The notes under the pieces: model-generated
Told to the model about the DNA's origin: nothing
What the model saw: the letters and a program-made list of their open reading frames with translations, nothing else
Database searches by the model: none
From: Kofleriaceae bacterium
Lineage (GTDB): Bacteria; Myxococcota_A; Polyangia; Haliangiales; Haliangiaceae
Reading direction: 5' to 3'
Assembly: GCA_024762925.1 (NCBI GenBank)
Contig: JANTGM010000055.1
Location: 1 to 37,401 of the forward strand
DNA: 37,401 bases
In this document: one piece after another, positions 18,141 to 26,657 of the stretch
Position numbering within the stretch: position 1 is the stretch's first letter
Layout of the letters: each line of letters starts with the position of its first letter
Made by a program: the position numbers and the translations under genes

Positions 18141-19223
18141 ATGCTTCGCATCCCAACAACTACCCTCGCTGCTCTGCTTCTCGCCACTGTCGCGAGCACA
18201 GGTTGCCAAGGTGCGGAGGTGGTTGCCATCGGCGAAGCTCACCAAGCAATCGTCAACGGCGATGTGAGTGAGAGCGATGACCAAGTCGTGGCCCTCGTGT
18301 ATCGCGGTAAGCAGTTTTGCAGCGGCACCATTGTCGGCAGTCGCACGGTTGTCACCGCTGCACACTGTCTGCCGCCAAACATCGATGTGCCCCTCTTTGG
18401 TATTGAGGTCTTCTTTGGGGCTGACGTTGCTAGTGGCGATGGCACCTTTCTTCGGGTGGTTGACGGACTCGCAAACCCAGAGTGGAACCTGGATGTCGTC
18501 GCTGGCGACGTCGGTGTCTTGGCTCTTGAGGAGGATGCCCCTGTCGCTCCAATGCCAATGGCCTACCTCGATGTCAGTGCCATGGGCATGATAGGCACCG
18601 AAGCCCGCGCCGTGGGATTTGGCATTACTGAGGCTGAGGGCGAGGGCAACGGGCAGCGGCGGACAGGCATGTTGATGGTCGATCGTTTTGATTCTTCCAG
18701 TCTTTTTCTCAACCCTGGGCCGTCTGCAACCTGTAATGGCGATTCTGGCGGAGCGCTTATCTTCGTTCAGGATGGTGTCGAAGTGCTTGGTGGCATCCAC
18801 TCTCGAAGCGACTGTGGTAGCTCGATCATCGCGGAGCGGGTAGATGTACACGCCATGGACTTCATCATGCCTTTCGTTGAAGAGCACGAGGGCGCAGCGA
18901 GTTGCAATGCAGACGGTATGTGCGCCAGCGGCTGCGATACGCCCGACCCTGACTGCCTCTGTGCCGCGGATGGCTTTTGTGGTGACACTTGCACGCATCC
19001 GTCTGCCGACCTCGATTGCTCGGCTGAGTGTCCTGCAGATGGAGTCTGTGATGAGAGTTGTTCTTACGACTATGATTGCTCCGAGGAGCCCGCTGACCTC
19101 TGTCCTGAAGATTCCGACTCGTGCGAGAGCACGGCTGGCGGCTGCTCAACGACCGGTTCGGGCAGCAGCGTTTGGTTTGCCCTGGGCATGCTCGCTCTCC
19201 TCATTCGCCGTCGGCAGCAATGA
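18141..19223 (+). CDS. Secreted trypsin-like serine protease with MYXO-CTERM type tail
   Basis: 360-residue S1-family protease. The signal peptide ends ATVASTGC, so lipidation at Cys22 is possible. The catalytic domain starts near AIVNGD (37-41, the usual activation site) and shows VTAAHC with His75, the region around GDVGVLAL with probable catalytic Asp123, and CNGDSGG with nucleophile Ser202. Three Cys modules of the form C-x-x-DG-x-C-x3-C ending in D-x-DC follow (about 255-313). The last 30 residues have GGC (Cys335), a hydrophobic helix SVWFALGMLALLI and RRRQQ, the layout of a MYXO-CTERM sorting signal processed by a myxosortase/rhombosortase-type enzyme. None of these enzymes is encoded here. 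Confidence 0.9.
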   Translation: MLRIPTTTLAALLLATVASTGCQGAEVVAIGEAHQAIVNGDVSESDDQVVALVYRGKQFCSGTIVGSRTVVTAAHCLPPNIDVPLFGIEVFFGADVASGDGTFLRVVDGLANPEWNLDVVAGDVGVLALEEDAPVAPMPMAYLDVSAMGMIGTEARAVGFGITEAEGEGNGQRRTGMLMVDRFDSSSLFLNPGPSATCNGDSGGALIFVQDGVEVLGGIHSRSDCGSSIIAERVDVHAMDFIMPFVEEHEGAASCNADGMCASGCDTPDPDCLCAADGFCGDTCTHPSADLDCSAECPADGVCDESCSYDYDCSEEPADLCPEDSDSCESTAGGCSTTGSGSSVWFALGMLALLIRRRQQ

Positions 19224-19291: not shown

Positions 19292-21727
19292 TCAAGCGGC
19301 CTTCAAGACCTGATCTCGCCGAGCTGCACGACGGTCAAGTAGCCGATAGGTCCAGACTTTGAGGTAGTCGTTAAAGACAAACCAGGCAGTACCATAGAGG
19401 TAAATTAAGCCTACCCAGCCCCAGCCGAGGGCGGGCATGAACAGGCCATAACACGCCACTAGAGTACCCACGACTCGTGTTCCCAGAGCGGGAATGAGCA
19501 ATTTCCAAGACGGATATGGGCGGTGCCAGAAGTGTCTGCGCCGGCTGCGTGTGACGTAGATTGTGGAGTGGCCCGCTACATCCAGCTTCAAAAAGATGAT
19601 GGCTTGCATAATGCCATGTGGCACCTGGTACTGCTCCAGGAGAAAGAAAAGGAGGAAGGAAGAGCAGACGCCGGCCACGCCGAGAACGCTGGCTACGGTC
19701 ATAACTTCTCTCATGTCCCAACGTACGGGTTTTGGGGCGACGCTTGCGTTGTCGTAGGCGATGGCCATGATTGGAATATCATTGAGCAGCGCCAATACAA
19801 CGATCATGATCGCTGTAACCGGATAGAAGTTGAAGACGATGATCGACAGCGACATGAAGAGAATCACACGCATCGTCTCTGCGATGCGGAAGACTGCATA
19901 GCTCCCCATGCGCTCGAAGATCATTCGCGCTTGTAGAATCGCCTCGATGATTACTGAGAGGCCCGACCTCATGAGTACCAGGTCCGCCGCAGCGCGGGCG
20001 GCATCGGTGGCTCCAGAAACCGCAATGCCGGCATCCGCTTTGCGTAGTGCTGGGGCATCGTTAACGCCGTCGCCTGTCATTGCGACAATATGGTCTGCGT
20101 CTTGAAGTGTATCGACGATGAGGTATTTGTCCTCCGGCATCACTTCGGCGAATCCGCCTGCACTCTCAATCGCAGCCAGGACGCTGTTCTTGTCTTTCTT
20201 AGACTCATGCAGTTTCTCAGCACGTTGGATGCCGTGGTCAATACCGAGCTTCGTAGCGATTTCCGCACCGATCGCAACGTTGTCACCCGTGATCATCTTT
20301 ACTTGCAGGCCCAGTGCCTTTGCACGCTTGATGGTCTCGGCCGAATCTTCTCGAGGAGGATCGAAGAAGGGCAAGATACCCATGGGATGGAAGAGCGTTT
20401 CGTTGGGCCGTCGCCTAGCCACGATGAGGGTGCGATTGCCTTTCTTGGCGAGAGACTCCACTCGTTCAAAGGCGTCATCTGGGATTTCTTCTGAGTCGCA
20501 CAACGAAAGGATCACCTGTGCAGCTCCCTTCGTTACAACCCAGCTAGTTCCGTCAAACTGTATGTTGGCCTCGGTGCGTTTGGAGACCGGGTCGAAGGGG
20601 TGGTAGCGGTCGGCATGAATGTCGGAAATCTCGCTGTATGCCTTCTCCTCCTTTAGCTTAGCGAAAATGGGAGTTTCCAGCGCATCGTGATTCTCTTCTC
20701 GGCTGGCCAGGGCCGCGAACTTGAGTACATCGAGTTTACTGAACTTGGCAAAGGGCTCGGGAGTTCCCAGGGCCATGAGGTTTTGCGTGAGAGTTCCGGT
20801 CTTATCACTGCAAAGAATATCCACGCCGGCGAGTTCCTCGATCGCAACGAGCCTGGAGACAATCGCTTGATGCTTTGCGAGGTTCATGGCTCCGACTGCC
20901 ATGGTTACGGATAGGACAGCAGATAGGGCTACTGGAATCGAGGCGATCGCGAGAACGAGACAGAATCGGAGGATTTCGAAGAACGGGTCGCCGCGATAGA
21001 GGGCAACCGCGATGATAACGAGGATTAGGGCAATCGCCAGGCTGATAAGAAAATTCCCTATCTTTATGACGGCCTTTTGAAAGTGGCTTCGCTGCTCGCG
21101 TTCCGCGCGGGCTACAAGCGAGACTGTCTTGCCGAAATAGGTATTGGTGCCGATGGCTTTCACTCGCCCGGTCATCTCGCCCATTTTCACAATCGCGTTG
21201 GCATACGCTTCTTCGCCTTTTGTCCTCGTGACAGGGAGGGACTCGCCCGTCAATGCAGATTGATCGAGTTGCAAGAACTCTCCATCCACGAGATCGAGGT
21301 CAGCGGGTATGAGGTCGCCTATCTTGGCTTTGATGATGTCGCCAGGAACAAGTTCTCGCGCTGGGAGTTGTAGCCAGGCACCATCCCGCATAACCAATGC
21401 CACTCTGGCGAGTTTACTCTTGAGAACGCGTAGTGCGCTGAGCGCCTTGGACTCTTGCTGGAAGTCGATGATGACGTTGGCAAAAAGTAGAACGAGGATG
21501 ATCGCCAAGTCATCCCACTTGCCAATCGATGCCGATAGGATTGCAGCAACCTCGATCATCCAGGGAATGGGGCCCCAGAAGCGTTTTAGTAGTCGCCTCC
21601 ACGCGGGCTCTTCGCGTTCGGCAAGTTCGTTGTAGCCATAGTTCTCCCGGGCGGCGAGTACCTCTTTGCTGGTAAGGCCTTGTAGAGTCGCGACGGGGGG
21701 CGATTCATGTGTTGCGGTTGAGGACAT
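19292..21727 (-). CDS. P-type H+-ATPase (P3A-like)
   Basis: 811-residue P-type ATPase, closest in texture to the plasma-membrane proton pumps of plants, fungi and some prokaryotes. Visible are LTGES of the actuator domain (about 159-163), IPVAL in helix 4 (about 264), the phosphorylation motif CSDKTGTLTQN with Asp308, and TGDGVNDAPALRKADAGIAV of the hinge. There is no heavy-metal CxxC or CPC motif, which argues against copper/zinc export. It lacks a long autoinhibitory C-terminal tail. The start is uncertain: an ATG at 21784 would add 19 residues, but a -10-like TATAAG (21755-21760, minus strand) lies inside that extension, so 21727 is preferred. It lies downstream of and in the same direction as the phosphate transport genes. 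Confidence 0.92.
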   Translation of the reverse strand: MSSTATHESPPVATLQGLTSKEVLAARENYGYNELAEREEPAWRRLLKRFWGPIPWMIEVAAILSASIGKWDDLAIILVLLFANVIIDFQQESKALSALRVLKSKLARVALVMRDGAWLQLPARELVPGDIIKAKIGDLIPADLDLVDGEFLQLDQSALTGESLPVTRTKGEEAYANAIVKMGEMTGRVKAIGTNTYFGKTVSLVARAEREQRSHFQKAVIKIGNFLISLAIALILVIIAVALYRGDPFFEILRFCLVLAIASIPVALSAVLSVTMAVGAMNLAKHQAIVSRLVAIEELAGVDILCSDKTGTLTQNLMALGTPEPFAKFSKLDVLKFAALASREENHDALETPIFAKLKEEKAYSEISDIHADRYHPFDPVSKRTEANIQFDGTSWVVTKGAAQVILSLCDSEEIPDDAFERVESLAKKGNRTLIVARRRPNETLFHPMGILPFFDPPREDSAETIKRAKALGLQVKMITGDNVAIGAEIATKLGIDHGIQRAEKLHESKKDKNSVLAAIESAGGFAEVMPEDKYLIVDTLQDADHIVAMTGDGVNDAPALRKADAGIAVSGATDAARAAADLVLMRSGLSVIIEAILQARMIFERMGSYAVFRIAETMRVILFMSLSIIVFNFYPVTAIMIVVLALLNDIPIMAIAYDNASVAPKPVRWDMREVMTVASVLGVAGVCSSFLLFFLLEQYQVPHGIMQAIIFLKLDVAGHSTIYVTRSRRRHFWHRPYPSWKLLIPALGTRVVGTLVACYGLFMPALGWGWVGLIYLYGTAWFVFNDYLKVWTYRLLDRRAARRDQVLKAA

Positions 21728-21842
21728 TGCGGCGTTTCGTTTGAGAGGGCGGGTCTTATACGCCTGGGTGGTGAGCGAATCCATATTGATATCGCGAAGT
21801 GGGGGACTCGATGTCGACTATGAACACGACAATGATGGGTGA

Positions 21843-21877
21843 TTCTCAAGAGTAGAAACTACGGTCTCTTTTGAGAA
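21843..21877 (-). terminator. Hairpin between DUF47 and H+-ATPase genes
   Basis: An imperfect inverted repeat (TTCTCAAGAG with CTCTTTTGAGAA, two-base bulge) forms a stem of ten base pairs with a 13-base loop. It lies about 200 bases downstream of the DUF47 stop and upstream of the ATPase. There is no T run in the minus direction, so terminator activity is a guess. Confidence 0.35.
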
Positions 21878-22081
21878 AGGGCAATCATGCACAAAGAGAC
21901 TTCAAGCATTAAATTCCTCGGTGCGGCGAAAATGGTTGGAGGCTCCTGCGAGTCTCGATGCCGTGGTACTCGCCCACGCTCATTCGGGATAGTTGAGAAG
22001 GTGGTCAATCGAACCGCCGAACGGGGGATTAGCCTCACCGCAAATAGAAGGCCTCACAAACCCCGAGGATACGATAAACTC
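21878..22081. other. Intergenic stretch downstream of the DUF47 gene
   Basis: No gene is supported. A long plus-strand frame begins here at 21887, but most of it is antisense to the DUF47 and PiT genes. No tRNA fits: one segment resembles a T-arm but lacks the rest of a cloverleaf. Confidence 0.4.
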
Positions 22082-22711
22082 TCAGGAGGATTTGACGGCA
22101 ATGTCGCCAAGTACGCCCGCAGCCTTGCGAACAAGAGCGGCTCCATCGGCGAGGTGATGATAGATCTCTCGCCGTTTCATGATTTCTATCGGATCGACTT
22201 GCTGGTAGAGGCTGGCAAGCGCCGAGTCGTAGCGGCGGCGGGCAAGACGCTCGGTCCGGCGAGCCACTTCGACGTCCTGGGCCACGAGCGGGCCTTTTTG
22301 GGCCAATGCGGAAAATCCCGAGTCCAGTGCTACCACCCCTGTCTGCACAATGCTGGCAAGGTCGATAATGGTGGCGTCGGCGCTAAGATCCAGTGCTTCC
22401 ATCTCACGCACCGTGCGCATGGTGTGCAAGACGATGCCATCGAGAATATCGGCGGCTCGGTAGATGTCCTCGCGGTCGTACGGCGTGGAGAACGCCTTAT
22501 TGAGCGCCTCGAGATTTCGCAGTCGAAGGCCATTCGAGTCTTCTTCCATGGTTTCGAATGCGGCCAGATCGGGCTGGTGATTTGCATCGCCCAGGGTCGT
22601 AGCCAGGCCGTCGGTTATGCGTCGCACCGACTCGCATTGTTCGGCGAGAAACTGACCAAAGTTGGGGCTGGGAGGGAAGAGTCGTCGCAGCCAACTCGTA
22701 GGAGTGCTCAT
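22082..22711 (-). CDS. DUF47 (PhoU-like) phosphate transport regulator
   Basis: 209-residue all-helical cytosolic protein of the DUF47 family, usually encoded next to PiT permeases and thought to modulate them. Typical features include N-terminal WLRRLFPPSPNFGQFLAEQ, a central helix IYRAADILDGIVLHTMRTVREMEAL and C-terminal YQQVDPIEIMKRREIYHHLADG, the region that in PhoU-like proteins carries acidic metal-binding residues. The ATG at 22711 overlaps the permease stop as ATGA and has a G-rich stretch before it. A second ATG 12 bases upstream is possible. The overlap implies coupled translation and a common role in phosphate uptake. Confidence 0.87.
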   Translation of the reverse strand: MSTPTSWLRRLFPPSPNFGQFLAEQCESVRRITDGLATTLGDANHQPDLAAFETMEEDSNGLRLRNLEALNKAFSTPYDREDIYRAADILDGIVLHTMRTVREMEALDLSADATIIDLASIVQTGVVALDSGFSALAQKGPLVAQDVEVARRTERLARRRYDSALASLYQQVDPIEIMKRREIYHHLADGAALVRKAAGVLGDIAVKSS

Positions 22712-23736
22712 GGAAGGCCCCACGATAGCAGTCGAACAAAGCCGGCACCAAGGAGGGCCGAGGCTGGCAGTGTCGCTACCCAGTTCATGGCGATCTCATT
22801 TACTTTGCTCCAGCGTACCGACCGAGGTCTCTCTGCAGCTCCTACTCCCATGATAGAGGCAGAGACCACGTGGGTTGTGGACACCGGGCCACCCCACATA
22901 CTGGCCGTTACGATCATGGCGGCGGAAGAGACTTGGGAATCCAAAGCGCTGAGCGGTCGCAGATGATAAATCTCATACCCTAACGTTTTTACGATACGCC
23001 AGCCGCCGATGAGTGTGCCGGTGGTGATAGCCGTCGAGCAGAGTACGATTACCCACAATGGGATGCCTCCACCGGAATCGTGACCCGTACAGACCAGGAG
23101 GGCTGCGAGGACTCCCATACTCTTTTGAGCGTCGTTTGTACCGTGGGCGAACCCCAGGGCTGGTGCTGTCAGCCACTGTCCGCGGCGAATCCACCGATTG
23201 GCGCTCGGTCTTGCGCGAGTCATGAGGCGACTCACGAGTTTGTGAAGCAGGAAGGCCATCAGAAACCCTATGAGGGGCGAGATGAGTAAGGCCGCGACGA
23301 TTTTCGCGAAGCCCGTGAGCTGTCCATTGGCCAGGTCCATGAAGCCCCAGTGCACGTGCCCAAATCCCAAGGCTGCTGAGGCTGCTCCCGCCAAGGCCGC
23401 AACCAGGGCATGAGAGGTTGAGGAGGGCAGGCCTCGACGCCAGGTAATGAGATTCCAGGAGATGGTGGCGAGTACTGCTGCGGTGATCACGTGGAACCCC
23501 ATCCTTGGATCGACATGTTCGATGGTGACAAAACTGCCGATGGTGGATGCCACCGCCGTGCCCCCCAGGATCGGGCCGGCAAAGGTTGCGATGCTCACGA
23601 CGATGATGGCGACCATGGGGCTCATGGCCCGGGCCACAATGACCGTTGCAACCATATTGGCGGCGTCGTGAAACCCATTCGTGAAGTCCATGGCAACAAC
23701 CAGGACGACGGCCACAATGACGAATGAGAAATCCAT
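22708..23736 (-). CDS. pit: PiT-family inorganic phosphate permease
   Basis: 342-residue inner-membrane protein of the PiT family, which imports inorganic phosphate (often as a metal-phosphate complex) coupled to H+ or Na+. The duplicated family signatures are clear: TNGFHDAANMVAT (residues 19-31) and GFAHGTNDAQK (195-205). Also visible are PSSTSHALVAALAGA and its second-half counterpart GGPVSTTHVVSASIMGVG. About ten hydrophobic segments are visible. The length is at the short end of the family, lacking a large central loop. It is first of a two-gene operon with DUF47. The coupling ion may be H+, which would suit the proton pump encoded downstream, but the sequence alone cannot tell. Confidence 0.93.
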   Translation of the reverse strand: MDFSFVIVAVVLVVAMDFTNGFHDAANMVATVIVARAMSPMVAIIVVSIATFAGPILGGTAVASTIGSFVTIEHVDPRMGFHVITAAVLATISWNLITWRRGLPSSTSHALVAALAGAASAALGFGHVHWGFMDLANGQLTGFAKIVAALLISPLIGFLMAFLLHKLVSRLMTRARPSANRWIRRGQWLTAPALGFAHGTNDAQKSMGVLAALLVCTGHDSGGGIPLWVIVLCSTAITTGTLIGGWRIVKTLGYEIYHLRPLSALDSQVSSAAMIVTASMWGGPVSTTHVVSASIMGVGAAERPRSVRWSKVNEIAMNWVATLPASALLGAGFVRLLSWGLP

Positions 23737-24116: not shown

Positions 24117-26657
24117 ATGGCAAACCGCTCCGCCTTTCCCGCATTCCTCCTCGCCGCCCTCGTAAGTCTTGGGCTCGCCGCCTGTGATCCACAAGCCTCG
24201 GAGTTTGGCTCGGGAAGTGGCAAGGCTGATGATATTGGCAGTTGTGAGGAAACTGCTGAGTGCGGCACTCGCAATATCGAAGTCATTTTCACAAACCCAT
24301 TTTGCGATGAATGCACAAGCGCCGAGAAGTCTGTTCTTTTGGAGCGCTCACAAATCATCAAGCGAGTCACTCAGCTCATTGATGGGGCCCAAGCTCGCAT
24401 CGATATTGCGCAATTCACCTTTAGTCGGAAGGGCATTGAAGCCGCCTTGCTCGCAGCACACGAACGAGGCGTTCAAGTTCGCATCGCAATGGATTCTGGC
24501 CAAGACCGAGATGGCACGGTTGCCAAGCGACTGCTCGATGCTGGCGTCGATGTTCGATTTGTCCAAGGCAAGGCGGCAGGCCCTGATCGCTTTGGCTTGG
24601 TTCACACCAAGTTCATGATGGTTGATGGCCAGACGCTTCTCACAGGCAGCAACAATTGGTCCTCAACCGGTACATCGATCAACAACGAGAACACCATGAT
24701 CATCATGGGTGCGCAGGGCGATGAGCTTATCGACGGCTTCGCTTGCAACTTCAAAGCAATTTGGGACTCGAAGATCGATGAGGCGTCTGCCTGCAGTGGT
24801 GACAACGTCTTCTTTACTCCAGGAGCCGAAGCGCGAATCGCCATTCGCGATAGCATTCGGGCTGCCACCACGTCTATCGACGTACTCATGCATCACTTCA
24901 CCTTCACCGATCTCGTGAAGGAACTCGCCAAGGCGCAAGAGGCCGGAGTGGCCGTGCGGCTCATTGTGAATGAAGCCGACCGGGGCGAAGTAAGCGGCAG
25001 CAAGTTCCAGCGTCTTCTCGACGCAGGTGGGCAGATTCACTTCAAGCGAGTCAATGAAGATGCGTTTCAGTTCATGCACAACAAGCTCGCTATCATCGAC
25101 GGCAAGATGCTCATCAATGGAAGCGGAAACTGGTCCGGTTCTGCCTTCTTTAACAACTACGAAAACTTCGTACGATACTTCGAGCCCGAGGTTGTGCGCG
25201 ATTTTGAGGACATGTACGACAGGCTGTGGTCTTGGTCGGTGAGCGCCGAAGGCCTTGACGCTGGTCTCACAGGAGCAGAGCAACACGCTGCGGAGACAAG
25301 CGCCTTCTACGGAAATCTTCACGCACACTTCCACGCAATACACACGGATGCAGAAGGCGAGCACAAGCTCGATGATGGTCGTGATCACCAACTTGATGAA
25401 GCCGGTGAGCCGCTTGCAGCGGATGTTGGCGACGATGTTGGAGCAGCTGCGCTGCATGCCTACGAATATGCACAGCGCGATGGCGGCCTCGACTTTATGG
25501 CGCTCTCACCGCACGTCACAAACGACAGCCCTTCGGATGGCCCCGATATGGCCAACATGAGCCAGGAGTCGTTTGATGAAATGCGCGGCACGGCAGAACG
25601 TGTAAACGATGAGCAAGCTGGCAGTTTTGTGGCACTTGCCTCCATGGAGTGGAGCACGAACTCGAGTGGCAACCACTTGGGAATCTTTGGAACTGATGCC
25701 TTGGCAAAGGTTGAGCGCGGCAAGTTTGATGAACTCTATGATGGTTTCTTGCATGAGCGGCGCGCTTCTGGTGAGCGCCCTCTTGTCATGATGAACCACC
25801 CGCGCACCTTGCGTGAGAACGAGGAGTTTCTTACGGGCAGTTGGGATCAAGTCTTTGGTGTGAATCTGCAGGACATTCCAAACAACTCGCAGCGCAAGAA
25901 GAAGTTCAATGACTATGGCTTGGACGACTACTCGCCAATGCGCGAAGTGTTGCCATCGTGGATCGATGGAAGCGCCATGCCAGACGAAAACATTGTTGAT
26001 CAAACCCTGCAGAATCTCCGTGATGCAAGTGCTCCGTATGCACGTTTGATGGAAGTAACGTTAGGACGCGGCACAGAGTTTGGCGATGAGAGTTCGCGCA
26101 ATCCAAGCCTCACCGAGGACGAGGATGGCAACATCGTACGTCGCACCAAGGTGCACACCGACTTTGACTACTACCTTGCTCGTGGTTTCCGTATTGCGCC
26201 GGTTGCGAATCACGACAATCACTTCGCGAACTGGGGTACGGGGCACTCCAGCCGTACAGGTGTTGTGAGTGATACCCTGTCAAAGAAGAAGCTCTTGGAT
26301 GCCCTAGACCGCCGCCGCATCTTTGCCAGCGAAGACGAGAATCTCAGCCTTCACTTCTATGTCAATGACCGCATCCCGATGGGTTCTGAGACTGCAACAA
26401 CAGAGTCCTCAGTAAAACTCTCAGCACTGATTAGCGACCCCGACTACAGCGGTACATATGAAGTGCGCGTCTACCTCGGTACGACCAACGGAAAAGCGAT
26501 TGAGCAAGTGGCCACCACCGAACTCTCAGCGGACGGCTGGCTCGACATGAATCTCGATATTGCCTCGGAAAGCACGAGCGTTGTGTATCTTGAAGTCTTT
26601 GAGGTCGATGCCAATCGCATGGCATGGACGGCACCTGTCTGGATTGACGCTCTCTAA
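24117..26657 (+). CDS. Lipoprotein fusing a two-HKD phospholipase D region to a PHP-type metallohydrolase region
   Basis: 846-residue predicted lipoprotein (AALVSLGLAAC, Cys23). Residues about 55-370 form a phospholipase D-like region with both catalytic HKD motifs: His163-Thr-Lys165 with Asp170, and His321-Asn-Lys323 with Asp328. Each is followed by a GSxNWS segment. Such enzymes cleave phosphodiester bonds in lipids or nucleic acids. Residues about 396-745 look like a PHP-superfamily metallohydrolase (CehA/McbA-like): YGNLHAHFH with His402/His404, LDFMALSPH (Asp459, His466), ALASMEWS (Glu511) followed by GNHLGIFG, MMNHPR (His561) and VANHDNH. The last 100 residues are beta-rich. Both active sites appear complete. 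It stands alone, divergent from the phosphate operon. Confidence 0.85.
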   Translation: MANRSAFPAFLLAALVSLGLAACDPQASEFGSGSGKADDIGSCEETAECGTRNIEVIFTNPFCDECTSAEKSVLLERSQIIKRVTQLIDGAQARIDIAQFTFSRKGIEAALLAAHERGVQVRIAMDSGQDRDGTVAKRLLDAGVDVRFVQGKAAGPDRFGLVHTKFMMVDGQTLLTGSNNWSSTGTSINNENTMIIMGAQGDELIDGFACNFKAIWDSKIDEASACSGDNVFFTPGAEARIAIRDSIRAATTSIDVLMHHFTFTDLVKELAKAQEAGVAVRLIVNEADRGEVSGSKFQRLLDAGGQIHFKRVNEDAFQFMHNKLAIIDGKMLINGSGNWSGSAFFNNYENFVRYFEPEVVRDFEDMYDRLWSWSVSAEGLDAGLTGAEQHAAETSAFYGNLHAHFHAIHTDAEGEHKLDDGRDHQLDEAGEPLAADVGDDVGAAALHAYEYAQRDGGLDFMALSPHVTNDSPSDGPDMANMSQESFDEMRGTAERVNDEQAGSFVALASMEWSTNSSGNHLGIFGTDALAKVERGKFDELYDGFLHERRASGERPLVMMNHPRTLRENEEFLTGSWDQVFGVNLQDIPNNSQRKKKFNDYGLDDYSPMREVLPSWIDGSAMPDENIVDQTLQNLRDASAPYARLMEVTLGRGTEFGDESSRNPSLTEDEDGNIVRRTKVHTDFDYYLARGFRIAPVANHDNHFANWGTGHSSRTGVVSDTLSKKKLLDALDRRRIFASEDENLSLHFYVNDRIPMGSETATTESSVKLSALISDPDYSGTYEVRVYLGTTNGKAIEQVATTELSADGWLDMNLDIASESTSVVYLEVFEVDANRMAWTAPVWIDAL

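What the first reader, a model, noticed from the sequence alone, without database searches (positions are those of the whole stretch)
24117..26657. Phospholipase D and PHP metallohydrolase regions in one lipoprotein
Two intact HKD motifs are followed by a region with the His/Asp/Glu pattern of PHP phosphoesterases. I do not know this pairing as a described enzyme. Two phosphodiester/phosphomonoester activities in tandem could degrade a phospholipid, teichoic acid-like polymer or extracellular nucleic acid stepwise, making it a candidate nutrient-scavenging or toxin-like enzyme. It lies next to the phosphate transporter, which suggests phosphate scavenging.
Basis: partly seen in the sequence, partly recalled or inferred. 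Interest (0 to 1): 0.62.

Follow-up and report, generated by a model that had tools for sequence, protein, structure and literature searches.

The report
Twin-enzyme PLD–PHP envelope lipoprotein
A protein tethered to the cell envelope of some uncultured Myxococcota joins two different hydrolase domains in one chain, a NucT-type phospholipase-D nuclease pair and a CehA/McbA-type metal-dependent hydrolase, both with complete active-site residues; its substrate is unknown, and breakdown of external nucleic acid is the likeliest guess.

Summary
ORF 24117-26657 (+, 846 aa) encodes a lipoprotein with two intact HKD motifs (PF13091) and a C-terminal PHP-superfamily metallohydrolase of the CehA/McbA family, followed by an Ig-like beta-sandwich. 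The PHP reading rests on NCBIfam NF038032 (66.8 bits, below the 80-bit cut-off), a profile-profile match to generic CehA/McbA proteins (99.9% probability, E 5e-37), solved PHP folds (3e38, 2anu) in a structure comparison, and an inferred nine-residue metal-ligand set conserved in every ortholog that covers those positions. The fusion is real: 22 Myxococcota genomes hold it or contig-cut pieces of it, 17 of them as one uninterrupted frame. It is uncommon (17 of 377 sampled genomes), and no description was found. The PLD half resembles NucT/Nuc nucleases more than lipases, and the only CehA/McbA activity found in the papers read is carbamate-ester hydrolysis, so "phosphomonoesterase" is not established. 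Best guess: an envelope-anchored hydrolase degrading external nucleic acid, the NucT-like pair cutting the chain and the PHP domain processing the products. The substrate is inferred.

The parts
24117..26657 (+). PLD-PLD-PHP lipoprotein gene, 846 aa
   Evidence: orthologs
24117..24185 (+). Lipoprotein signal peptide, lipobox LAAC with Cys23
   Evidence: read from the sequence; lipobox-like N-termini in most orthologs with a complete N-terminus
24219..24230 (+). G-K-A-D motif after the lipid-anchor Cys, shared by most orthologs and some other lipoproteins of the genome
24279..24780 (+). PLD half 1 (about residues 55-221), HKD H163/K165/D170, conserved C63/C66
24804..25242 (+). PLD half 2 (about residues 230-375), HKD H321/K323/D328; 35% identical to half 1 over 108 aa
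25275..26336 (+). PHP (CehA/McbA-type) metallohydrolase domain; inferred ligands H402, H404, D420, H466, E511, H520, H561, D700, H702; family-specific insert about residues 565-640
26337..26654 (+). C-terminal Ig-like beta-sandwich (residues 741-846), within the CehA/McbA profile

Best explanation
The gene encodes an envelope-anchored, two-centre hydrolase. Shown here: a lipoprotein signal; a tandemly duplicated NucT/Nuc-type PLD module with two complete HKD motifs; a CehA/McbA-type PHP metallohydrolase domain with the complete inferred metal-ligand set; and a beta-sandwich tail. Inferred: the two HKD motifs form one intramolecular active site that cuts a phosphodiester polymer, most likely extracellular DNA or RNA (for example from lysed or preyed-on cells), through a phosphohistidine intermediate without metal. 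The metal-dependent PHP centre then hydrolyses the released oligonucleotides or ends to small products for uptake. This is much like outer-membrane-associated NucT of Helicobacter in purine salvage, but with a second enzyme built in.
For: Domains. Inferred catalytic residues invariant across deep divergence in both halves, with similar conservation of the PLD and PHP parts, so both centres are under selection. PLD half: best NCBIfam match is nuclease NucT (E 9.2e-32, below its equivalog cut-off); best PDB sequence matches are MitoPLD/Zucchini, Nuc and NucT, with one phospholipase (7e0m) among them. The first GG/GS motif is GS, as in nucleases, not GG as in Streptomyces and human PLDs (motif rule from PMC8004604; sequence read here). 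NucT is a periplasmic, membrane-associated endonuclease linked to purine salvage (PMC5714352). Three orthologs carry an HhH-like module before the PLD pair; one of the two tested matches HHH_3 weakly, below the cut-off.
Against: Family membership does not fix the substrate: SpPLD (7e0m) also has GS and is described as a phospholipase, and it is the best Foldseek match of the PLD half. The HhH-like module occurs on non-nuclease lipoproteins of the same genome, so it is weak evidence for DNA. Characterised CehA/McbA enzymes are carbamate esterases (PMC8292978). The CehA/McbA and NucT model scores are below the curated cut-offs. No genomic context supports any substrate.
Confidence: 0.4

Rival explanations
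1. Phospholipid-degrading enzyme: the PLD pair makes phosphatidic acid (or cleaves cardiolipin), and the PHP domain removes the phosphate or acts on the head group.
For: Best Foldseek match of the PLD half is the Serratia phospholipase D 7e0m; membrane-tethered protein; cardiolipin-synthase models match weakly.
Against: Sequence profiles favour NucT/Nuc/Zucchini nucleases; GS rather than GG motif; no lipid-metabolism neighbours conserved.
Confidence: 0.25
2. The PHP domain is a carboxyl- or carbamate-esterase acting on a different substrate from the PLD pair; the two activities are joined for co-localisation, not as consecutive steps.
For: CehA/McbA are carbamate-ester hydrolases; His313, His315, His453 and His495 are important in CehA (PMC8292978).
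Against: CehA/McbA is one characterised branch of a large superfamily most of whose known members act on phosphoesters (general knowledge); the subfamily here is distinct, with an insert of about 75 residues, and was found fused to the PLD pair wherever the contig was long enough to tell.
Confidence: 0.2
3. Phosphate-scavenging enzyme co-regulated with the neighbouring PiT transporter.
For: PiT gene at 22708-23736 lies about 380 bp away.
Against: Adjacency absent in the same-genus relative and in every fetched ortholog neighbourhood; no Pho-box-like site upstream; the genes are divergent.
Confidence: 0.1

Closest known systems
NucT (Helicobacter pylori) and Nuc/Zucchini PLD endonucleases
   Same: PLDc_2 domain, HKD motif, GS motif, envelope location (NucT)
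   Different: Single HKD per chain and active as dimers; here two copies in one chain, plus a PHP domain; scores far below the NucT equivalog cut-offs (110 against 297 bits)
CehA/McbA family metallohydrolases (carbaryl hydrolase; NF038032)
   Same: Inferred PHP ligand set, NHP motif, D-N/T-H motif, C-terminal beta-sandwich, A-P-x-W end
   Different: Here fused behind a PLD pair; family insert of about 75 aa after NHP and a longer loop after HxH; SPH/TPH instead of the usual D/E before the motif-II His; score below the NF038032 cut-off
Serratia plymuthica PLD (7e0m) and PLD3/PLD4 exonucleases
   Same: Two HKD halves in one chain; best structural matches of the PLD half
   Different: No PHP domain; 16-19% identity in the structural alignments

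Membership tests
PLD superfamily (PLDc_2) | Two HxKxxxxD motifs | tested here: met
PLD superfamily (PLDc_2) | PLD fold | tested here: met
   Foldseek 7e0m E 3.5e-18
NucT equivalog | Curated NCBIfam score | tested here: not met
   110 bits against a cut-off of 297
NucT-type nucleases | Nuclease activity | not testable with these tools
   needs biochemistry
PHP superfamily / CehA-McbA family | Metal-ligand set HxH..D..H..E..H..H..DxH | tested here: met
   invariant in all rows that cover them; the set except H520 is also invariant when generic CehA/McbA proteins are added; that they bind metal is inferred
PHP superfamily / CehA-McbA family | Profile membership | tested here: inconclusive
   NF038032 E 2e-18 but 66.8 bits against a cut-off of 80; hhalign to family members E 5e-37
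PHP superfamily / CehA-McbA family | PHP fold | tested here: met
   3e38 Z 9.6 over 233 aa, 2anu Z 9.5 over 206 aa; moderate-confidence model, and beta-sandwich matches rank alongside
PHP superfamily / CehA-McbA family | Esterase or phosphoesterase activity | not testable with these tools
   needs biochemistry

The most novel reading that the evidence does not exclude
A previously undescribed two-step envelope hydrolase family of Myxococcota, in which a metal-free PLD nuclease and a metal-dependent PHP enzyme act one after the other on one polymer, a built-in digestion machine for prey or environmental nucleic acid.
Probability: 0.35. Interest if true: 0.5.

Novelty: new variant of a known kind. 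Interest (0 to 1): 0.33.

Why it matters
It is a conserved fusion of two mechanistically unrelated hydrolases with both active sites kept, in a phylum that includes predatory bacteria. If the activities are sequential it shows how such bacteria may process polymers at the envelope, and it would give the poorly understood CehA/McbA group a candidate natural role other than pesticide hydrolysis. No application follows directly.

Tried and rejected
Phosphate context: no conserved PiT neighbour and no Pho box. Conserved operon: none; only nearest relatives share neighbours (L076 with the window, L037 with L077). DNA-binding support from the HhH-like module: found in three orthologs, but also in lipoproteins with other domains, so counted as weak. 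PDB sequence search with the PHP part alone gave only chance matches; generic CehA/McbA relatives do reach 3e38. Viral-contig scans with the PHP profile found no relative. Plasmid search gave only distant CehA/McbA proteins. The full-length AF2 model was poor over the PHP part; modelling the part alone was better. Foldseek alone listed no PHP structure among its top 50 for that model, mostly beta-sandwich matches. A search of another phylum centred on a plasmid record was not possible. Literature: no paper on a PLD-PHP fusion found. The GK[AG]D motif as a general sorting tag: only 9 of 68 lipoprotein-like N-termini in hand carry it, nearly all of them this family, so left open.

Full report
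Check of the observation. The frame 24117-26657 (+) is open, 846 aa, and starts with a lipoprotein signal ending L-A-A-C23. Pfam gives two PLDc_2 matches (E 3.4e-52), each with a complete HxKxxxxD motif followed by G-S-x-N. The two halves are 35% identical over 108 aa, as expected of an internal duplication. The C-terminal half matches NCBIfam NF038032, CehA/McbA family metallohydrolase (E 2.1e-18; 66.8 bits, under the 80-bit cut-off).

Is the C-terminal half really PHP? Three further lines agree. Profile-profile comparison of eight ortholog PHP regions with generic CehA/McbA proteins gives probability 99.9 and E 5e-37, with the HxH, E, NHP and DNH motifs aligned. An AF2 model of this part alone (pLDDT 66.6, pTM 0.67) aligns to the PHP structures 3e38 and 2anu (Z 9.6 and 9.5 over 233 and 206 residues), the broadest matches listed, while residues 741-846 match Ig-like sandwiches. 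Beta-sandwich matches have similar Z over about 100 residues, and the model is of moderate confidence, so the fold result supports rather than proves. In an alignment with generic members, H402, H404, D420, H466, E511, H561, D700 and H702 are invariant; H520 is invariant within the family. That these bind metal is inferred from the PHP pattern.

Is the fusion real and how common? Matches that can only be this subfamily were found in 17 of 377 sampled Myxococcota genomes and in five more close relatives, 22 genomes in all. In 17 of them the gene is one uninterrupted frame over the whole PHP profile; in the others it is cut by contig ends. A peptide-pattern scan of a genome collection covering 84,980 species returned seven loci; six are labelled Myxococcota, Myxococcales or Deltaproteobacteria, and the one labelled only bacterium has a contig of the same length (36,991 bases) as one in a held Myxococcota genome (G307). 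That scan is not exhaustive, so absence elsewhere is not shown. Between this subfamily and the next CehA/McbA proteins there is a clear gap in E-value (1e-59 or better against 1e-23 or worse). The protein tree mostly follows family labels, but the window's protein and its same-genus relative group with one protein of another family (99/98 support), which suggests transfer or old paralogy.

Both active sites are kept. Over 20 ortholog rows every HKD residue is identical, and so is every inferred PHP ligand in the rows that reach it (17 rows reach the last ones); four cysteines (C63, C66, C210, C226) are invariant too, as expected for an exported protein. PLD and PHP parts are similarly conserved (about 45-64% identity, same-genus relative aside) while the sandwich varies more (30-41%).

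Context. The PiT gene lies on the other strand about 380 bp away. No homologue of it occurs in the fetched ortholog neighbourhoods, up to 10 kb each side but shorter on small contigs. In the same-genus relative (L076) the PLD-PHP gene follows the trypsin-type gene directly, so the P-type ATPase, a 359-aa ORF and PiT separate them only in the window. Only nearest relatives share neighbours. No Pho-box-like match lies upstream of the gene, and the window has no more of them than shuffled sequence.

Mechanism. The PLD pair resembles NucT/Nuc/Zucchini in sequence. The GS motif is the nuclease-type form according to PMC8004604, though the phospholipase described there has it as well, and that phospholipase is the best Foldseek match. 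NucT is a periplasmic, membrane-associated endonuclease linked to purine salvage (PMC5714352). Characterised CehA/McbA enzymes hydrolyse carbamate esters, with four histidines important for activity in CehA (PMC8292978). The best-supported reading is therefore an envelope-tethered polymer hydrolase, nucleic acid most likely, with the PHP domain as a second step. Domain content and residue conservation are shown; substrate, order of action and exact location are inferred. Asp follows the lipid-anchor Cys here but this position varies among orthologs, and sorting rules for this lineage were not tested.

Verdict. Interest 0.33.

Noticed in passing
window 24219-24230; L003, L004, L118 and most orthologs: A G-K-[A/G]-D motif lies about 10-40 residues after the lipid-anchor Cys in most orthologs and in several other lipoproteins of the same genome; possibly a lineage sorting or linker signal.
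   Followed up: partly
L036, L072, L073 N-termini; G000:C2:55005-55247, C68:2424-2666, C83:23812-24048, C96:11714-11950, C71:13694-13915: An approximately 80-residue module, weakly HhH-like in some copies (HHH_3, below cut-off), recurs in Myxococcota lipoproteins with different partner domains, including other PLD lipoproteins.
   Followed up: partly
window 19292-23736: P-type ATPase, an ORF without Pfam match (21887-22966) and the PiT gene lie between the trypsin-type gene and the PLD-PHP gene here, but these two are adjacent in the same-genus relative L076, so this block looks inserted or rearranged. The 21887-22966 ORF overlaps PiT by about 260 bases on the other strand.
   Followed up: no
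window 18141-19223; L076:8622-9731: A trypsin-type protease gene lies directly upstream of the PLD-PHP gene in the same-genus relative (76% identity to the window's copy), about 94 bp between the open frames there.
   Followed up: no
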